A DNA stretch of 31,346 nt, taken from a virus. Shown here piece by piece: positions 3,726-26,471 of the stretch (within the stretch, counting starts at the first letter, position 1; each line of letters starts with the position of its first letter). A program made the position numbers and the translations under genes. The notes under the pieces are model-generated. The model was not told where the DNA came from and searched no databases. It worked only from the letters and a program-made list of their open reading frames with translations. The stretch covers positions 1-31,346 of IMG/VR virus record IMGVR_UViG_3300024999_000283; one strand, written 5' to 3'.

Positions 3726-3902
3726 ATAAGAAAAGTAAGATTCCTAAAAGACCCTAATTCATTCAAGAAAGATACTTATAGAGTTATTATGGAAGAAACT
3801 GCATTGCATTATCGTATTCAAGTTAATTTGGATAGGGATGAGTTATATTGGTTGAATAAAATAGATAATGGAGATTTGTTTCAGGTAGTAGAGAGGAGTT
3901 AG
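3726..3902 (+). CDS. hypothetical protein, 58 aa, apparent ATA start
   Basis: AAGGAGG is 8 nt before an ATA at 3726. The frame (IRKVRFLKDPNSF and on) is open for 59 codons to a TAG just before the next gene. No ATG, GTG or TTG exists in frame between the upstream TAA and the 22nd codon; the first ATG would remove a third of the protein and has no ribosome binding site. The protein continues as TYRVIMEETALHYR and ends QVVERS. Function unknown; notable mainly for its start codon. Confidence 0.6.
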   Translation: MRKVRFLKDPNSFKKDTYRVIMEETALHYRIQVNLDRDELYWLNKIDNGDLFQVVERS

Positions 3903-7463: not shown

Positions 7464-7943
7464 ATGCTTGTTAAATGTAAATGTCATAGTGTTAAAATTG
7501 ATAGAGATATTGCTTTTAAAGTAGTTGTAAATAATAAAAATGAATACTATTGTTCAGAGCGAGAATATCTCGAATTAAAAGAGAAAAAAGAGGGCAGAAA
7601 AATTATTCTAGAAAAGATAAACAATGTGTTTGGATATACAATTACAAATACTATCTTAAATAAAGAATTAAGTGAATTATCCAAGGTTTATTCTTTTACA
7701 AAAATGAATTCATATGTTAATGAAAATATGATTGAATTGCAAAAGTTTATGAGTAAATCATTTACTAGTGAATATGGAAAAATAAAATATTTTACAACAA
7801 TATTAAAAAATAATCTTAAAGATTATATAGTTGCAAATTCAGAAATTATTAAAGAGTCTACAGAGCAAGAAGTAATTATTACAAAATATAAACCTAGAAA
7901 TAGAAAAAAAAGTTTAGACGAATATATAAGTGATTTGGAGTGA
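7464..7943 (+). CDS. small Zn-finger replication protein, helicase-loader candidate, 159 aa
   Basis: AGGAGG precedes the ATG. The N-terminus has KCKCH and, about 25 residues later, YYCSEREY, giving a probable zinc site (C-x-C-H ... C). The rest is helical with a basic KPRNRKKS patch before the acidic end. The stop overlaps a GTG in the helicase gene by 4 nt, so the two are translationally coupled. Its size and its place just before a DnaB-like helicase fit a helicase loader or primosome protein; that role is inferred from position only. Confidence 0.5.
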   Translation: MLVKCKCHSVKIDRDIAFKVVVNNKNEYYCSEREYLELKEKKEGRKIILEKINNVFGYTITNTILNKELSELSKVYSFTKMNSYVNENMIELQKFMSKSFTSEYGKIKYFTTILKNNLKDYIVANSEIIKESTEQEVIITKYKPRNRKKSLDEYISDLE

Positions 7944-12181: not shown

Positions 12182-13411
12182 ATGAAAGAAATTCAGTATT
12201 GTAGTATATGTGGTGTATCAGAAAAGGATACAAGGTTTTATTATAATAACAAATGTGGTAAAAATTTGTGTAACAAACATTATACGCAATTAAATAGAAG
12301 TGGAAAAGTTACTGATTCTTCTCAACCAGATACAACTTTTAAAAAGATATATTGGACTCCTGAAGAAGAAAAGATGTTAATAGATTTAGTAGATAATAAA
12401 ACTCCCTATGAAGAAATTGCAATAATATTAAATAAAAGATCAAGTGGTTCTATAAGTAGTAAAGTTGCTAGTATGGGTATTGAAACAAAATATACAAATA
12501 GCTCAAAATTTAAAGCAATTTATCAAGATTATGATTGGTGTTATCAAAAATATATGATTGAGGGATTAAATCACGAAGAAATGGCGTCGGAAGCTAAATG
12601 TTCTATGAGAGTTATTGAAAAGTGGTGTTCAGAAAGACATAGATTAACTCAAGAACATAGACAAGTACATAAACAACTAAACGACAAGCAAAAAGATTTA
12701 ATAGTTGGTTCAATGTTAGGAGATGGGCATATTGATAAAAGAGAAACACAACCTATTTTCATAGTCGTACATGCAGAAGATCAAAAAGATTATTTGTATT
12801 ATAAATATGAATTATTGAAAGAATTCTGTAATATATCTCCAACAAAACAAGAAGCAGGATTTAGAGAGTTTAATGGGAAATTATATCCTTGCCAAGCTAC
12901 ATATAGAATATGCACAAGAATATACGATTGCTTTTTAGAATATAGAGGTAAGACATATACACATCTATTAAATTTAATGAATGAATTCTCTTTTTCAATA
13001 TGGATGTTGGATGATGGATATAGGAGTAGTTCTAATTGGGAATTATGTATTTGTGAATATACAGAAGAAGATATTAATAATGCTTTAAATATTTTTAAAG
13101 ATAAATTTGGTCTAGTGGGTAAATTTAAAAAAGATATAAGGTATCTAATGTTTGATGCAATTTCATCACGTAAAATAGATGAGATTATATTGAAAAACAT
13201 CCCAAATGAATTAGATATAATAAAAAATAAAATTACTGAAAATAATATTTCAGCAGGACAGAAGTTTATATATGTGCAATATAATAATGAGGATATAAAA
13301 CTGCATGAATTATGTAAAGATTTAGAGTTAGATTATAAATATGTTTGGCAGAAATTAAATAGAGGTGGTTCTATAGAAGAAATACTTAATAAAAGGGCGG
13401 TAAATTTATGA
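12182..13411 (+). CDS. LAGLIDADG homing endonuclease with N-terminal zinc module, 409 aa
   Basis: Three parts are visible. (1) A zinc-type module at residues 7-40: CSIC, then LCNKHYTQLNRSGK. (2) A Myb/SANT-like DNA-binding segment, YWTPEEEKMLIDLV, near 58-100. (3) Two LAGLIDADG helices: IVGSMLGDGHI (about 174-184) and FSIWMLDDGY (about 271-280), giving a single-chain double-motif nuclease that cuts long asymmetric sites. The C-terminus has a further helical DNA-binding segment. It stands between recJ-like and dnaE-like genes, and its stop overlaps the polymerase start as ATGA. No intron or intein boundary was seen, so it appears free-standing. Confidence 0.8.
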   Translation: MKEIQYCSICGVSEKDTRFYYNNKCGKNLCNKHYTQLNRSGKVTDSSQPDTTFKKIYWTPEEEKMLIDLVDNKTPYEEIAIILNKRSSGSISSKVASMGIETKYTNSSKFKAIYQDYDWCYQKYMIEGLNHEEMASEAKCSMRVIEKWCSERHRLTQEHRQVHKQLNDKQKDLIVGSMLGDGHIDKRETQPIFIVVHAEDQKDYLYYKYELLKEFCNISPTKQEAGFREFNGKLYPCQATYRICTRIYDCFLEYRGKTYTHLLNLMNEFSFSIWMLDDGYRSSSNWELCICEYTEEDINNALNIFKDKFGLVGKFKKDIRYLMFDAISSRKIDEIILKNIPNELDIIKNKITENNISAGQKFIYVQYNNEDIKLHELCKDLELDYKYVWQKLNRGGSIEEILNKRAVNL

Positions 13412-16400
13412 AAGATAATTATGTAACTTATCATTTACATACTGAATTATCTTTATTAGACTCATGTACTAATTTTAAGCTATATGTTGATAAAGCAGTA
13501 GAGTTAGGACAAAAAGCAATATGTTTTTCAGAACATGGTAATGTATATAATAATGTAGAGAAGAAGATATACTGTGACAAGAATAATATTAAATATATTC
13601 ATGGGTGCGAAGTATATCTCACTGAAACATTAGATGAAAAAGTAAGAGACAACTTTCACACCATCCTTATTAGTCGTAATTTTGAAGGTGTAAAAGAAAT
13701 TAATAAATTAATAGATATATCTACTCAAGATGATCATATGTATTATAAAAATAGAATATCATTTGATGAATTTCTTAATGTATCTAATAACATTATTTGC
13801 ATCTCTGCCTGTTTAGCTTCACCGCTGAACAGGCTAGAGGAAACTAACCCATACTATGAAAAACTATTACATAAATATGATTACTATGAAATTCAACCAC
13901 ATGTTCATTCAGAAGATCAAAAGTTATACAATAAAAAACTATATGAATTATCTCTTAAATATTCTAAACCACTGATTTGTGGCACAGATACACACGCACT
14001 GAATAGTTATAAAGAAGAGTGTAGGAGTATTTTACAAAAATCTAAAAAAATTGAATATGGAGACGAAGATAAATATGATCTAACCTATAAAAGTTATGAA
14101 GAAGTAGTAGAAATGTTTAAGCAACAAAATGTATTACCTGAGTCTATTTATCTAGAAGCAATCAATAATACTAATGTAATGGCTGATTCTGTTAGTGAAT
14201 ATAATTTAGACTTTTCTTTTAAGTATCCTAAATTATATGATAATGAAGAAGAAGTTCTTAAAAAACTTATCAATACTAAATATAAGTATAAGGTTAAGAA
14301 GGGAATTATACCCAAAGATAAGATTTATAAAACAAATATGCTAGAAGAATTTAGGGTGTTTAAAAAAATTGGTATGATTGGTTTTATGTTATTCATGTCT
14401 GAGCTGGCTACTTGGTGTAGAGAAAATAATATACCTTTTGGTAATTGCAGAGGCTCTGTTGGAGGTAGTACGATTGCTTTCATACTTGATATTATTGATT
14501 TAGATCCAGTCAAATGGAATACTGTATTTTCAAGATTTGCCAACGAAGACAGGATTGAAATCGGGGATATCGACATGGATTTTAGTCCTTCTCAAAGGGA
14601 GTTAGTTTACAATTATATCATTGATAGATTTGGTAGTGATTACACTTCATATATATTAGCAATTGGCACAATGGCAGAGAAGGGTACTATTGATGCTATT
14701 GGAAGAGCTTTAAATATACCCATACCAGTTGTTTCAAAGATTAAAGAGGATTATGAAAAAGATCCTGAAGAAACTAAATTAAAAAATCCAGACTTATTTT
14801 ATTATTTTGATGGATTATTAAATACTGCTGTTTCTCAATCAATGCATCCGGCAGGTATGATAGCTAGTCCTATCTCTTTGCCTGATAATTATGGGACTGT
14901 ATGGAAAGATGGCAAGAGAATACTTTGTATTAACATGGAAGAGGTGCATGAAGTATCATTAGTAAAATATGATATTCTAGGTTTAAAAAATATTGAAATT
15001 ATTAAAGATACTTGCGAATTTATTGGTGCTCCTTATCCTTTATCTCATGAAATAGATTGGGAAGATAAAAAAGTGTGGGATGATATTATTACTTCTCCTG
15101 TCGCGATCTTCCAATTCGAAGGCAATTTTGCTTTTGATTTATTGAAAAGATATATACCACTCAAGATTAACGACCTATCGTTAGTAAACGCATGTTTGAG
15201 GCCATCTGGAGCAAGTTATAGAGATAGACTAATAGCAAGAGAATTTAATAAAAATCCATCTGAATTAATTGATAACCTATTAAAAGATAATAATGGATTT
15301 TTAGTTTTTCAAGAGGATTGTATTGCATTCCTACAACAAATTTGCGGGTTGAGTGGTAGTGAAGCAGATAATGTTAGAAGAGCAATTGGACGTAAACAAA
15401 AGGATAGAATTGAAGAAGCATTACCTAAAATACTTGAAGGTTATTGCGGAAAATCAGATAAACCGAGAGAAATATCTGAATTAGAAGCAAAAGAATTTTT
15501 AGATATTATCGAGTCGGCCAGTTCGTATATGTTTGGTTTTAACCATTCTACGGGGTATTCGATGATAGGTTATTTATGCGGTTATTACAGATACTACTAC
15601 CCCCTCGAATTTATTACTGCGTATCTAAATAATGCAAACAATGAAGACGACATTAGGGATGGTACAGAATTAGCAAAATTAAAAGGTATTAAAATTAGTC
15701 CTATCAAGTTTAGATATTCAAAAGCAAAATATTTCCCAGATAAAGAAACAAATACAATTTACAAAGGGATAGGAAGTATCAAGTTTTGTAATGAAGATAA
15801 TGGAAGTAAATTATATGAATTAAGAGATAAAAAATATGATACTTTTTATGATGCAATGACCGATATTTTATCTACAGGTATTAATTCTAAACAATTAGAT
15901 ATACTTGTAAAACTAAATTTCTTTAGTGAATTTGCTAAATCAAAAAAGATATTAAGATTTATTGAATTATATGGCATTATAAATTCTGCAAAACAATTAT
16001 CTAAAGATAAGGTTACAAAATTCAATATTAATGTTGATATAATAATTAAATATTCAAGACAAACTGAAAAGAAATTTATTTTATCTGATAATGCAAAGAT
16101 ACTAGAGGAATTATGGGAAGAAATACCCAACAAAAGCATTAATATTAAAGATAGAATACGAACAGAAGTTGAATTTTTAGGTTATCCAGGAACTAAATCA
16201 AGTGAAATATCAAAGGAATATGCTATGGTGGTTGATATTAATACAAAGTATAAAAATCCTGTAGTTACATTATACGAAATGAATAGTGGTAATAAAGAAA
16301 TCATTAAAATAAAGAATAAGCAATTCAATCTGAATCCGTTTGAATTATATGATGTAATCAAAACTAAAGATAGGAAAAGAGAAAAGAAATGGAAAAAGAC

Positions 16401-16491
16401 AGCAGATGGTTTTGAACAGATTGATGAGAAAGAAAATATATTATCATCATGGGTAGTAGTTAAACAAAAAGAGGAGGAATTACAATCCTAA
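13408..16491 (+). CDS. dnaE: DNA polymerase III alpha subunit, DnaE type, 1027 aa
   Basis: Replicative family C polymerase. The PHP domain is at the N-terminus with TYHLHTELSLLD (residues 7-18), CFSEHGN and CGTDTHAL. The palm carries FGNCRGSVGGSTIAFIL and the catalytic IGDIDMDFS with Asp 387, 389 and 391. MHPAGMIAS and SYMFGFNHSTGYSM further along match conserved finger regions. PolC-type exonuclease insertions are absent, so it is DnaE-like; at 1027 residues it is somewhat shorter than typical bacterial DnaE, mainly at the C-terminus. Start chosen at the ATG overlapping the homing endonuclease stop; GGGCGG is a weak ribosome binding site. The 3' end overlaps the next gene by 7 nt. Confidence 0.9.
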   Translation: MKDNYVTYHLHTELSLLDSCTNFKLYVDKAVELGQKAICFSEHGNVYNNVEKKIYCDKNNIKYIHGCEVYLTETLDEKVRDNFHTILISRNFEGVKEINKLIDISTQDDHMYYKNRISFDEFLNVSNNIICISACLASPLNRLEETNPYYEKLLHKYDYYEIQPHVHSEDQKLYNKKLYELSLKYSKPLICGTDTHALNSYKEECRSILQKSKKIEYGDEDKYDLTYKSYEEVVEMFKQQNVLPESIYLEAINNTNVMADSVSEYNLDFSFKYPKLYDNEEEVLKKLINTKYKYKVKKGIIPKDKIYKTNMLEEFRVFKKIGMIGFMLFMSELATWCRENNIPFGNCRGSVGGSTIAFILDIIDLDPVKWNTVFSRFANEDRIEIGDIDMDFSPSQRELVYNYIIDRFGSDYTSYILAIGTMAEKGTIDAIGRALNIPIPVVSKIKEDYEKDPEETKLKNPDLFYYFDGLLNTAVSQSMHPAGMIASPISLPDNYGTVWKDGKRILCINMEEVHEVSLVKYDILGLKNIEIIKDTCEFIGAPYPLSHEIDWEDKKVWDDIITSPVAIFQFEGNFAFDLLKRYIPLKINDLSLVNACLRPSGASYRDRLIAREFNKNPSELIDNLLKDNNGFLVFQEDCIAFLQQICGLSGSEADNVRRAIGRKQKDRIEEALPKILEGYCGKSDKPREISELEAKEFLDIIESASSYMFGFNHSTGYSMIGYLCGYYRYYYPLEFITAYLNNANNEDDIRDGTELAKLKGIKISPIKFRYSKAKYFPDKETNTIYKGIGSIKFCNEDNGSKLYELRDKKYDTFYDAMTDILSTGINSKQLDILVKLNFFSEFAKSKKILRFIELYGIINSAKQLSKDKVTKFNINVDIIIKYSRQTEKKFILSDNAKILEELWEEIPNKSINIKDRIRTEVEFLGYPGTKSSEISKEYAMVVDINTKYKNPVVTLYEMNSGNKEIIKIKNKQFNLNPFELYDVIKTKDRKREKKWKKTADGFEQIDEKENILSSWVVVKQKEEELQS

Positions 16492-17015
16492 GTTACTATA
16501 AATACACAGACAAGCAAAAAGAAGAATTACTAAAATCAATTGTAATACTTGTAGATACTCGTGAACAGTCATGGAATCATATCGCCAAATATTTTGATGA
16601 AAAGAAAATACCTTATAAAGTAAAGAAATTAAACTATGCTGATTTCTCATACTATATCCCAAAGAATGACGAACTTAATATACCTCGTGATATGTATATG
16701 GATCAAATTATTGCTGTTGAGAGGAAGGGTTCTCTAGAAGAATTGTCTGGTAATTTCTCAAATGATAGAGATAGATTTGAAAAAGAACTAAGTCTCTACA
16801 AAGGTAAAATGCACCTACTAATTGAAAATTCTTCATACGATGACATCTACAACAATAATTATAAAACTCAGTATAATAAGAAGTCATATATGGGAAGTCT
16901 ACATAGTTTTGCATTGAGATATGATTTATCGGTTATGTTCATGCCCAAGAATGAATGTAGTGGAGTTTATATATTCTGTGTTTGTTATTATCATCTTAAA
17001 AGTTTATTGCATTAA
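16485..17015 (+). CDS. ERCC4-type nuclease, 176 aa, apparent ATC start
   Basis: ERCC4/XPF-family nuclease core: VDTREQSW (residues 23-30), LNYADFSYYI, and IAVERKGSLEELSGNF with the catalytic ERK at 79-81, followed by RDRFEKEL. Such proteins cut branched or flapped DNA. GGAGG lies 7 nt before ATC at 16485. The frame opens after TAA at 16461 and contains no ATG, GTG or TTG before the DTREQ motif; the first ATG is at residue 70, inside the catalytic domain. An AUC start inside the last codons of the polymerase gene is therefore the most economical reading. Last gene of the replication operon, just before promoter P3. Confidence 0.75.
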   Translation: MLSYYKYTDKQKEELLKSIVILVDTREQSWNHIAKYFDEKKIPYKVKKLNYADFSYYIPKNDELNIPRDMYMDQIIAVERKGSLEELSGNFSNDRDRFEKELSLYKGKMHLLIENSSYDDIYNNNYKTQYNKKSYMGSLHSFALRYDLSVMFMPKNECSGVYIFCVCYYHLKSLLH

Positions 17016-17033
17016 ATCAATAAATAAAATTAT

Positions 17034-17062
17034 TTGACTTACTATTCCCCACATGCTATAAT
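17034..17062 (+). promoter_or_regulatory. promoter P3, sigma-A type
   Basis: TTGACT, 17 bp, TATAAT in the gap after the ERCC4-type nuclease: 5/6 and 6/6 hexamer matches with ideal spacing. The -35 entry TTATTTGACT resembles that of P2. It would drive the small paralogous genes and possibly the ribonucleotide reductase operon. Confidence 0.8.
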
Positions 17063-17150
17063 ATTCACAGGAAGTAAACAAATCTCAAAACTATATTCAA
17101 CTTAACGGATTATAATTTATACTAATGTAAAGGAGGTGAAAACAAACAAA

Positions 17151-17300
17151 ATGAACACTCAAAAAGTTATCAATCGTATTGACGGAGTATGGACTACGTG
17201 TGATTCCACAGAATACAACTCCCAAGACACAGCAAATTTCATGTTCAGCAAAAATCGTGAAACCAATGTTACTACATACTTTAAGAAAATCGGTGAATAA
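17151..17300 (+). CDS. small protein, 49 aa, paralog of the 17429 gene
   Basis: AAAGGAGGTGA precedes the ATG by 10-11 nt. The sequence has IDGVWTTCDSTEYN, which lines up with RDGDWIQCSSEEYN in the gene at 17429 (shared D-G-x-W-x2-C-x-S-x-E-Y-N, then T-N and Y-x-K-K). Both probably fold as a tiny beta-rich unit. Under a strong promoter, so likely abundant early. Function unknown. Confidence 0.65.
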   Translation: MNTQKVINRIDGVWTTCDSTEYNSQDTANFMFSKNRETNVTTYFKKIGE

Positions 17301-17329
17301 TTGACACAAATATCAGTCATAATTAACAT
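17301..17329 (+). promoter_or_regulatory. weaker promoter candidate
   Basis: A perfect TTGACA begins right after the stop of the 17151 gene, with TAACAT (4/6) 17 bp downstream. If active it would transcribe the hairpin at 17351 and the ATT-start gene. The poor -10 box makes this tentative. Confidence 0.35.
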
Positions 17330-17350
17330 ACTTAAAGCATAAAATAAAAT

Positions 17351-17407
17351 GTAGCAAGAGTTTGATTACACACAGATTAATTATAATACTAATCAAATTC
17401 TTGCTAC
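17351..17407 (+). repeat. inverted repeat, 18-bp arms, in the 5' leader of the 17429 gene
   Basis: Left arm 17351-17368 (GTAGCAAGAGTTTGATTA) pairs with right arm 17390-17407 along all 18 positions with one G-U wobble; the loop is 21 nt. The ribosome binding site of the ATT-start gene begins about 9 nt after the stem. No U-tract follows, so it is not a standard terminator. It may be an RNA control element or an RNase III-type processing site. Confidence 0.7.
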
Positions 17408-17428
17408 AATCAAAAGAGGTGATTACAT

Positions 17429-17626
17429 ATTAAAATTTTACATGGTAGAGACGGAGATTGGATTCAATGTAGTTCCGAAGAGTACAATAAAAATTATACC
17501 GACAAGACTAATTACTACGCATTCATTGTAGATCAAGACACTAATAAAGGACATTATTATAAAAAGGTAAGAATTGAAGTTTTTGATAAAGAATCAGAAA
17601 TTAAGAATGAAAGGATGGAAGATTAA
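17429..17626 (+). CDS. small protein, 65 aa, apparent ATT start
   Basis: GAGGTGAT (complementary to the 16S tail) is followed, 9 nt after GAGG, by ATT. The frame begins just after an in-frame TGA at 17420, so only TTA, CAT and ATT codons are available ahead of the conserved block; the sole in-frame ATG is three codons before the end. The block RDGDWIQCSSEEYN matches the paralog at 17151, which has a normal ATG at about the same distance from this block. That supports both the gene and the ATT start. The C-terminus adds a charged KESEIKNERMED tail. Function unknown. Confidence 0.65.
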   Translation: MKILHGRDGDWIQCSSEEYNKNYTDKTNYYAFIVDQDTNKGHYYKKVRIEVFDKESEIKNERMED

Positions 17627-17629
17627 AGT

Positions 17630-17836
17630 TTGGTTAGTTTTGGATTATGTTCTCGTGACATTTGTGAAAAATCTAATGAATGTAAAAGATATTTAAATAG
17701 GGACTCTCCCAATGCAAATCCAGTTTATTTTAGATTCAAAAATATTTGTAGTGAAAGTAATGAATATCAATGGTTGATAAAAGTAGAGTCTAGTGACTTA
17801 ATTCCAAAAGAAGAAGGTGATACACAATCTATATAA
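17630..17836 (+). CDS. small Cys-rich protein, 68 aa
   Basis: TTG start with GGAAG about 8 nt before it, three bases after the previous stop. The N-terminal CSRDICEKSNEC (C-x4-C-x5-C) followed by KRY resembles tiny phage zinc-binding proteins. A further Cys lies in KNICSES. It overlaps the next gene by 10 nt in another frame. Function unknown. Confidence 0.55.
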   Translation: MVSFGLCSRDICEKSNECKRYLNRDSPNANPVYFRFKNICSESNEYQWLIKVESSDLIPKEEGDTQSI

Positions 17837-18075
17837 ATAATATATCTCTAGAAGGCATTGATTTTAATAAATATATAGTCATAAAACAAGAGGATTTATA
17901 TAAATATACTTCTGAGCAAGATCAAATTGATTTAGCAAGGATTATTAAAAATATTAGAGTTAGTAGAGTTAAGTTTAATAAGAAACCTAGCAATAAGTAT
18001 TTAGTTATAAATATTGATGAGGATTATGCAGGAGATGTTATTGAGATTTTGAAGAAGAATAATCATTGGGGATAA
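17827..18075 (+). CDS. hypothetical protein, 82 aa, apparent ATC start
   Basis: AAGAAGGTGA ends 6 nt before ATC at 17827. The frame starts after an in-frame TGA within that same site and has no ATG, GTG or TTG until a TTG near the C-terminus, so no ordinary start can produce the protein. It reads as a soluble protein: IYINNISLEGIDFN, charged DLARIIKNIRVSRVKF, then a beta strand KYLVINIDEDYAGDV. Function unknown. Its place in a packed operon supports a real gene. Confidence 0.55.
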   Translation: MYINNISLEGIDFNKYIVIKQEDLYKYTSEQDQIDLARIIKNIRVSRVKFNKKPSNKYLVINIDEDYAGDVIEILKKNNHWG

Positions 18076-18095
18076 GGGAAGTAGGTGATTATATA

Positions 18096-18269
18096 ATGAC
18101 AATGAATTATGGAGATATGGATATCTTAGACATCGTAAGAGAAATTAAAGTGTTACTAGATAAATTTTCTGGAAGTATTAGTAAAACCGAAATTGAACAA
18201 ATAAGAATATTATCAAACAATTTAAGCAAAGAATGTGGAAATATTTTATATGATTGGAGTAAGTGTTAA
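18096..18269 (+). CDS. hypothetical protein, 57 aa
   Basis: The ATG at 18096 follows GTAGGTGAT with good spacing; the earlier in-frame ATG at 18066 precedes that site and overlaps the upstream gene. Helical and amphipathic (DILDIVREIKVLLDKF; TEIEQIRILSNNL), suggesting a helical bundle or dimer. Function unknown. Confidence 0.6.
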   Translation: MTMNYGDMDILDIVREIKVLLDKFSGSISKTEIEQIRILSNNLSKECGNILYDWSKC

Positions 18270-18331
18270 CTTAAAATAATCTTTTCTTGGGATAAATGTA
18301 AATATAAAAATAAAAATATTGGAGGATACAT

Positions 18332-18526
18332 ATGGTATTATATTCAAATGATTGCCCTAAATGTAAAATACTAAAATTTAAACTAGATAGTAAAAACATC
18401 CAATATAAATTATGTTCTGATATAGACACAATGACATCAAAAGGTTTTCAATCAATGCCAATGTTAGAGGTAGAAGATAAAACTATGAATTATTTAGACG
18501 CAATAAATTGGGTAAAGGAGCAATAA
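18332..18526 (+). CDS. NrdH-like glutaredoxin, 64 aa
   Basis: Short thioredoxin-fold redoxin: strand MVLYSN followed by the redox motif DCPKCKILK (Cys 8 and 11), then SMPMLEVEDK, which supplies the cis-Pro strand, and YLDAINWVKEQ as the last helix. GGAGG precedes the ATG. It ends two bases before the NrdD start, so it is probably the electron donor for that reductase. Some class III reductases are known to use thioredoxin- or NrdH-type redoxins instead of formate; the same is inferred here from gene order. Confidence 0.75.
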   Translation: MVLYSNDCPKCKILKFKLDSKNIQYKLCSDIDTMTSKGFQSMPMLEVEDKTMNYLDAINWVKEQ

Positions 18527-20942: not shown

Positions 20943-21740
20943 ATCGAGAGATTTTGTGAAATATGTAATAGTAATAAAGGTGTTAGATTTAATGAAAAAT
21001 TAAATAAAAATATCTGTAAAAGACATTATTGGCAATTATGGAAATTTGGAAATATATTACCGATTAAAGATAAAATAAAACATATTTGTGAAGTTTGTGG
21101 TAGTGATACACAAGTTGGTTGCATAGCAGATAAATATTATTGCAGAAGACATTATCAACAAATGAAAACATTTGGTTATACAAAACAGAGAACTAATAGA
21201 GATTTAAATGAAATAGTTTTACATGATACATATGCTGAAATAGTTTTATATGATGAAAATCAAATAGAAGAAGCAAGATCCCCGATAGACCTAGAAGATG
21301 TAGAAAATTGTAAAATTCATAGATGGAATTTAACTGTAGAAAAATATGTTACTAATCACACTGTAGGAAGATTACATAATTATGTAATGAATTTTGATCC
21401 TCCGGAAGACAAATCTAAAGTTGTCAATCATATAGATAGAGACAGAAAAAATTGTAGAAAATATAATCTTGAAATTACTACATATCAAGTAAATGGTATT
21501 AATAAAGGAAAACAGTCAAATAATACTTCTGGATTTCCTGGAGTATCTTGGGACAAATCAAAAAATAAATGGGAAACCTATATAAAATTGAACGGCAAGA
21601 AGAAATTTCTAGGTTATTATATTGACATAGAAGATGCCGTTAAAGCAAGACAGGAAGGAGAAGTGAAATATTTTGGTGCAGTAGTTAATAGAGATAATGA
21701 TGTAAATACTATCTTTAAAAACAAATCATTAAATAATTAA
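20943..21740 (+). CDS. HNH-AP2 homing endonuclease, 265 aa, apparent ATC start
   Basis: Two zinc-type modules open the protein: C5-x2-C8 ... C25-x2-H28 (CEIC, ICKRHYWQL) and C49-x2-C52 ... C67-x2-H70 (CEVC, YCRRHYQQM). An HNH domain follows at about 145-176 (GRLHNYV, VVNHIDRDRKNCRKYNLEI) and an AP2 DNA-binding domain at about 195-244 (SGFPGVSWDKSKNKWETYI, FLGYY). The frame opens directly after the nrdG TAG, and the only plausible start ahead of the first Cys module is ATC at 20943, 9 nt after AAGGAG; the first ATG comes after both zinc modules. Free-standing between nrdG and dut. Confidence 0.75.
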   Translation: MERFCEICNSNKGVRFNEKLNKNICKRHYWQLWKFGNILPIKDKIKHICEVCGSDTQVGCIADKYYCRRHYQQMKTFGYTKQRTNRDLNEIVLHDTYAEIVLYDENQIEEARSPIDLEDVENCKIHRWNLTVEKYVTNHTVGRLHNYVMNFDPPEDKSKVVNHIDRDRKNCRKYNLEITTYQVNGINKGKQSNNTSGFPGVSWDKSKNKWETYIKLNGKKKFLGYYIDIEDAVKARQEGEVKYFGAVVNRDNDVNTIFKNKSLNN

Positions 21741-26294: not shown

Positions 26295-26471
26295 ATGAGA
26301 AATAATGTAAATATATTAAACAAATAAATTTTAACAAATAAAGAACTCGAAGTTAAACATTATGACCGCATGATGGAATTTTTAATTTCAGATTTTGAAG
26401 GAAGAGATTTTAATGAGTGTGATATTATTTTGAGACAAATCATTAAGGTCGCATATGAACTTGCTAAATGA
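26295..26471 (+). pseudogene. broken small gene, in-frame TAA after 10 codons
   Basis: AAAGGAG leads to an ATG at 26295, but the frame stops after MRNNVNILNK at TAA (26325-26327). The same frame then continues open for 47 codons (ILTNKELEVKHYDRMMEFLI and on) to TGA. The downstream part looks coding. It is a decayed gene, or it is re-initiated at the ATT directly after the TAA, which would fit the AUH starts elsewhere here. No second ribosome binding site is seen. Confidence 0.5.

What the first reader, a model, noticed from the sequence alone, without database searches (positions are those of the whole stretch)
17151..17626. A paralog pair independently supports the ATT start
The products at 17151 (normal ATG) and 17429 share D-G-x-W-x2-C-x-S-x-E-Y-N and downstream T-N and Y-x-K-K residues. 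In the first gene the ATG lies about ten codons before the DG; in the second the ATT after GAGGTGAT lies about seven codons before it. The pair gives an internal reference for where translation should begin and shows the ATT copy is conserved coding sequence. The copy with the unusual start also has a long hairpin just upstream, so one duplicate may have gained a different expression control.
Basis: partly seen in the sequence, partly recalled or inferred. Interest (0 to 1): 0.6.

Follow-up and report, generated by a model that had tools for sequence, protein, structure and literature searches.

The report
Conserved AUU start codon in phages
A small gene in a large clostridial-type phage really does begin with the rare start codon AUU, its relatives in other phages keep AUU or AUA there, and about seven genes in this window alone use such weak starts, far more than in the bacterial chromosomes checked, so standard gene finders miss or mis-start them.

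Summary
The 17151 (ATG) and 17429 (ATT) products are adjacent paralogs (39% identity, E 8e-6). The 17429 frame has no ATG/GTG/TTG before codon 63 and is closed just upstream of ATT. From codon 2 on, relatives differ mostly synonymously (pN/pS 0.12). In 12 aligned relatives the start position reads ATT (10) or ATA (2); one more (L015) has ATG with a three-residue extension.

The ATT is not isolated. Seven window genes start with AUH (AUU/AUC/AUA), and at homologous starts AUH alternates with ATG, TTG or GTG. Across related contigs, 32 of 71 strong-SD ORFs lacking a canonical start have AUH (6.6 expected, p=4e-15). In 80 Bacillales chromosome loci the only AUH excess is infC, the known case. AUH starts have longer SD matches than ATG starts.

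The hairpin is real and conserved, but the ATG-bearing relative keeps it and the other AUH genes lack it, so it is a separate control.

Best explanation: ordinary host initiation at a weak codon rescued by a strong SD, giving low, probably IF3-sensitive expression. The mechanism is inferred from bacterial precedents; the codon-level facts are well supported; drift remains a live rival.

The parts
17034..17062 (+). sigma-70-type promoter TTGACT-17-TATAAT (TG before the second hexamer) upstream of gene A
   Evidence: 11 of 12 consensus matches; the scan's total count is at chance level; a TATAAT-like element is retained upstream of gene A in relatives
17151..17300 (+). gene A, 49 aa, ATG start, SD AAAGGAGGTGA; paralog of gene B
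   Evidence: ATG in every relative listed
17351..17407 (+). RNA hairpin between the paralogs: 18-bp stem here (15-bp conserved core), 21-nt loop
   Evidence: z -7.2; 209 of 210 cells paired, 14 one-sided changes that keep a pair, 2 two-sided changes
17416..17423 (+). Shine-Dalgarno GAGGTGAT of gene B
   Evidence: 8-nt match to AAAGGAGGTGATC, spacing value 10
17429..17431 (+). ATT (AUU) start codon of gene B
17429..17626 (+). gene B, 65 aa, DGxW small protein; function unknown
3726..3902 (+). 58-aa gene with ATA start; aligned codon is ATG in L038, L055, L060
7949..9496 (+). DnaB-like helicase; ATA start likely (GTG at 7940 lies inside the SD); ATC in L011 and TTG in L106 at the aligned codon
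16485..17015 (+). ERCC4-type nuclease, ATC start; TTG in L014 and L023, ATT in L024
17827..18075 (+). 82-aa gene, ATC start; ATT or ATC in several relatives, other N-termini in the rest
20943..21740 (+). HNH-type protein, ATC start; ATA in L020/L052
25631..25822 (+). 63-aa gene, ATA start; ATA in L013, L014, L017, L044; GTG in L016; TTA in L036

Best explanation
Gene B is translated from AUU at 17429. Shown by comparative sequence: the start position is AUH in nearly all relatives, with a strong SD at the right distance, a closed frame upstream and protein-level constraint from codon 2 on. Inferred: the host ribosome and host initiator tRNA (anticodon CAU) initiate there with a third-position mismatch, the long SD compensates, and the result is low expression of gene B relative to its ATG-started neighbour A, sensitive to host IF3, as for infC. 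The same device is used on about seven genes of this window and recurrently in the related phages, including replication genes.
For: No canonical codon before codon 63 and a stop just upstream. ATT or ATA at the start in 12 aligned relatives, with frame-breaking length changes immediately upstream (GGTGATACAT, GGTGAATACAT, GGTGATTACAT) and synonymous changes from codon 2 (pN/pS 0.12). AUH aligned with ATG/TTG/GTG starts of homologs in about ten gene families. AUH excess at strong SDs: 32 of 71 against 6.6 expected, p=4e-15, with ATA, ATT and ATC each enriched and no other codon. The same method recovers infC's ATT in Bacillales and only 3 other AUH sites there; phage versus chromosome p=5e-8. 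AUH starts have longer SD matches than ATG (7.3 vs 6.3 nt, p=0.0015) and spacing 8-10 in 20 of 21. Precedents: S. aureus AUU/AUA starts with extended SDs give about 10% of AUG output (PMC13009471); Listeria ATG > ATA > ATT (PMC13068326); IF3 represses non-canonical starts (PMC5472188). No IF3 domain above cut-off and no initiator tRNA on the phage contigs.
Against: No expression data: low output and IF3 sensitivity are inferred. The host is unknown. In L003, L004, L005, L006, L011 and L016 an in-frame GTG lies inside the SD and could in principle start there (it is blocked by a stop in the window and in L008, L012, L013, L017, L020). The few observed changes at the start (ATT to ATA, ATG once) do not prove selection for weakness. 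Many relatives come from one metagenome series and are not fully independent.
Confidence: 0.7

Rival explanations
1. Neutral tolerance: AUH starts arise by mutation from AUG/UUG in an AT-rich genome and persist because a strong SD buffers the loss; no regulatory role.
For: AUH, TTG, GTG and ATG interchange at homologous starts; genome is AT-rich (GC 0.28).
Against: Gene A is ATG in all relatives listed while gene B is almost always AUH, a consistent asymmetry; AUH starts carry stronger SDs than ATG. Neither excludes drift with compensation.
Confidence: 0.3
2. The host or phage makes AUH starts efficient (relaxed IF3, modified ribosome or phage factor), so these are ordinary strong starts in this system.
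For: High frequency of AUH in one phage group; used on helicase and nuclease genes.
Against: No IF3 domain and no initiator tRNA found on the phage contigs; strong-SD compensation suggests AUH is still weak. Host unknown, contigs possibly incomplete.
Confidence: 0.12
3. Gene B starts at another codon: GTG inside the SD, or a +1/-1 product such as the out-of-frame ATG at 17442.
For: In-frame GTG exists in some relatives; ATG 17442 lies close by in another frame.
Against: A stop codon blocks GTG in the window and five relatives; GTG would sit in the SD with no SD of its own; synonymous constraint follows the ATT frame from codon 2.
Confidence: 0.04
4. Pseudogene or assembly error.
For: Three relatives (L010, L017, L020) carry frameshifts in gene B.
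Against: Frame intact with pN/pS 0.12 in many separate contigs.
Confidence: 0.01

Closest known systems
infC (IF3) AUU/AUA/AUC start codon and IF3 autocontrol
   Same: AUH codon with strong SD at optimal spacing, conserved in orthologs; recovered by the same scan in Bacillales
   Different: not an IF3 gene, in a phage, several genes per genome, IF3 response untested
S. aureus cvfC1 (AUU, 61 aa) and ccpN (AUA) starts with extended SD (PMC13009471)
   Same: small protein or regulator, extended SD, start class conserved among relatives
   Different: only four such sites reported in that bacterium; here seven in 31 kb of phage
Streptomyces sigR GTC start repressed by IF3 (PMC5472188)
   Same: weak start sets the ratio of two co-encoded proteins, a model for the A/B pair
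   Different: different codon, proven by experiment there, inferred here

Membership tests
infC-type (AUH) non-canonical start | AUU/AUC/AUA at a start position conserved in orthologs | tested here: met
   ATT or ATA in 12 aligned relatives; L015 ATG
infC-type (AUH) non-canonical start | no usable ATG/GTG/TTG in frame | tested here: met
   first ATG is codon 63; TGA closes the frame upstream in the window
infC-type (AUH) non-canonical start | strong SD at optimal spacing | tested here: met
   (8 nt, spacing value 10); for the set
infC-type (AUH) non-canonical start | reduced initiation relative to AUG | not testable with these tools
   needs reporter fusions
infC-type (AUH) non-canonical start | repression by IF3 | not testable with these tools
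   needs IF3 overexpression or fidelity mutants
Known protein family for gene B | match in Pfam, PHROGs or known folds | tested here: not met
   none for gene B; no fold match below E 0.001 (model mean pLDDT 70)
Intrinsic terminator (hairpin) | G+C stem followed by T run | tested here: not met
   none found in 16900-18400

The most novel reading that the evidence does not exclude
A group of large Firmicutes phages places a set of genes, including replication genes, under weak AUH starts as a regulon that reads host IF3 or translation state, a use of the infC device not found in the phage literature searched here.
Probability: 0.25. Interest if true: 0.75.

Novelty: new variant of a known kind. 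Interest (0 to 1): 0.55.

Why it matters
AUH starts are treated as rare exceptions in bacteria (under 0.3% of Listeria core ORFs use rare or flexible starts, PMC13068326). Here they make up about 13% of strong-SD starts in the phage group (roughly 4-5% of all alignable starts) and occur on helicase, nuclease and, in other phages, DNA polymerase genes. Gene callers limited to ATG/GTG/TTG miss these genes or place the start on a GTG inside the SD, as in the deposited phage LIBA6276. It gives a direct test of whether phages exploit IF3-dependent initiation.

Tried and rejected
Hairpin as SD sequester: the SD lies outside the stem. Hairpin as terminator: no T run. Hairpin tied to AUU: L015 has ATG plus hairpin; other AUH genes lack one. 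L010's ATG as supporting evidence: rejected, because two extra G put it out of frame. Phage-encoded IF3 or initiator tRNA: none found (one tRNA-Thr only). Host identification through genome contigs with the polymerase: no relatives. Five ATA counts came from the shifted L010 query, and L015:2277 lacks a proper SD; both are discounted. The helicase start was one base off and redone. SPO1 and phage K stretches (49 kb each) showed no AUH starts, so the habit is not universal in large Firmicutes phages. Structure model of gene B: beta-beta-alpha-beta-beta, modest confidence, no fold match.

Full report
What the window is. It is one complete IMG/VR record of 31,346 bases, a fragment of a large phage. 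Its polymerase III alpha gene (13408-16491) is 46% identical to that of Clostridioides phage LIBA6276. No close DNA relative is in the phage collection, but viral contigs hold many relatives, the largest 230 kb.

The pair. The B product finds A on the same contig at E 8.4e-6. The match starts at B residue 2 and places A's ATG three codons further out, so the paralogy shows that coding extends at least to codon 2 but does not by itself fix the start.

The start. The B frame contains no ATG, GTG or TTG before codon 63. Upstream it is closed by TGA within the SD (TGA TTA CAT ATT). In relatives the bases between SD and start change length (GGTGATACAT, GGTGAATACAT, GGTGATTACAT), so no upstream frame is conserved. 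From codon 2 on the changes are mostly synonymous (AAA/AAG, TTA/CTA, CAT/CAC, GGT/GGC; pN/pS 0.12 over codons 2-25). Codon 1 is ATT or ATA (ATA in L004 and L018). L015 has ATG with a three-residue extension in another leader. L010 shows ATG but is frameshifted shortly after it and is not counted. Gene A is ATG in all relatives listed.

Not isolated. Six further window genes start with AUH: ATA 3726, ATA 7949 (helicase), ATC 16485 (ERCC4-type nuclease), ATC 17827, ATC 20943 (HNH-type), ATA 25631. Relatives carry ATG, TTG, GTG or another AUH codon at the same aligned position. A radical-SAM-like gene (my reading of its CxxxCxxC motif) of contig G001 has ATA where L023 has ATG, and one family has ATA in G001 and ATC in G005. 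In an automated comparison, homologs lacking a canonical start but having an SD read AUH in 19 cases and any other codon in 10; one of the 19 (L015:2277) has no real SD.

Statistics and controls. Among ORFs without a canonical SD-linked start but with an SD match of 7 or more at spacing 8-10, AUH occurs in 32 of 71 against 6.6 expected from codon use (p=4e-15). The same scan on 80 Bacillales chromosome loci centred on infC found 33 AUH sites, 30 of them infC itself, a positive control, and three others. Against 214 and 257 canonical strong-SD starts this gives p=5e-8 for phage versus chromosome without infC. Clostridial and Bacillus phage controls gave 4 and 3 AUH cases, weaker but pooled p=0.006, and their polymerase genes appear to start with ATA in L083, L086, L095, L097, L098 and L101, possibly ACG in L094 and L104. 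SPO1 and phage K stretches gave none. AUH starts have longer SD matches than ATG starts. Limits: many contigs share a metagenome series, duplicates were removed only by exact context, the chromosome control is one neighbourhood, almost all from Bacillales, not the host, and conditioning on strong SDs raises the percentage (about 4-5% of all alignable starts).

Hairpin. An 18-bp stem with a 21-nt loop sits between A and B (z -7.2). Fourteen sequences keep a 15-bp core with 209 of 210 cells paired. Changes are mostly A to G giving G-U pairs, plus two two-sided changes, which points to RNA rather than a DNA palindrome; shuffles reach the covariation score in 23 of 500, so the covariation alone is modest. 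It leaves the SD free and has no T tract. A processing or 5'-stabilising element is my inference. It is present in the ATG relative L015 and absent from the other AUH genes, so it is independent of the start codon.

Mechanism. No IF3 domain above cut-off and no initiator tRNA were found on the phage contigs, so host machinery is the simplest agent. In S. aureus AUU/AUA starts with extended SDs give about 10% of AUG output (PMC13009471), in Listeria ATG > ATA > ATT (PMC13068326), and IF3 represses such starts (PMC5472188). By analogy gene B is made at a low level relative to A. That step, and any regulatory purpose, is inferred; drift buffered by strong SDs remains possible.

Novelty. AUH starts are known singly in bacteria. 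Paper searches for phage use of AUU/AUA/AUC starts found none, within an open-licence library only. Recurrent use in one phage group is a new variant of a known kind.

Noticed in passing
26296-26469: A short gene has an in-frame TAA at 26326 where relatives (L052, L017, L013, L044, L010) have GAA or GAG: a nonsense change in this copy.
   Followed up: yes
L068:7281-7946: Deposited Clostridioides phage LIBA6276 phosphatase gene is annotated at a GTG inside its SD; the homolog-supported start is ATT three codons downstream.
   Followed up: yes
L094 and L104, about 9998: Polymerase III alpha genes of two Bacillus-type phages appear to start at ACG after a good SD.
   Followed up: partly
L010:9976-10177; gene B copies in L017 and L020: Three relatives carry frameshifts in gene B, two of them after the motif, so the gene may be dispensable in some phages.
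   Followed up: partly
12182-13411: The gene just upstream of the polymerase looks like a homing endonuclease by sequence; not tested against a library.
   Followed up: no
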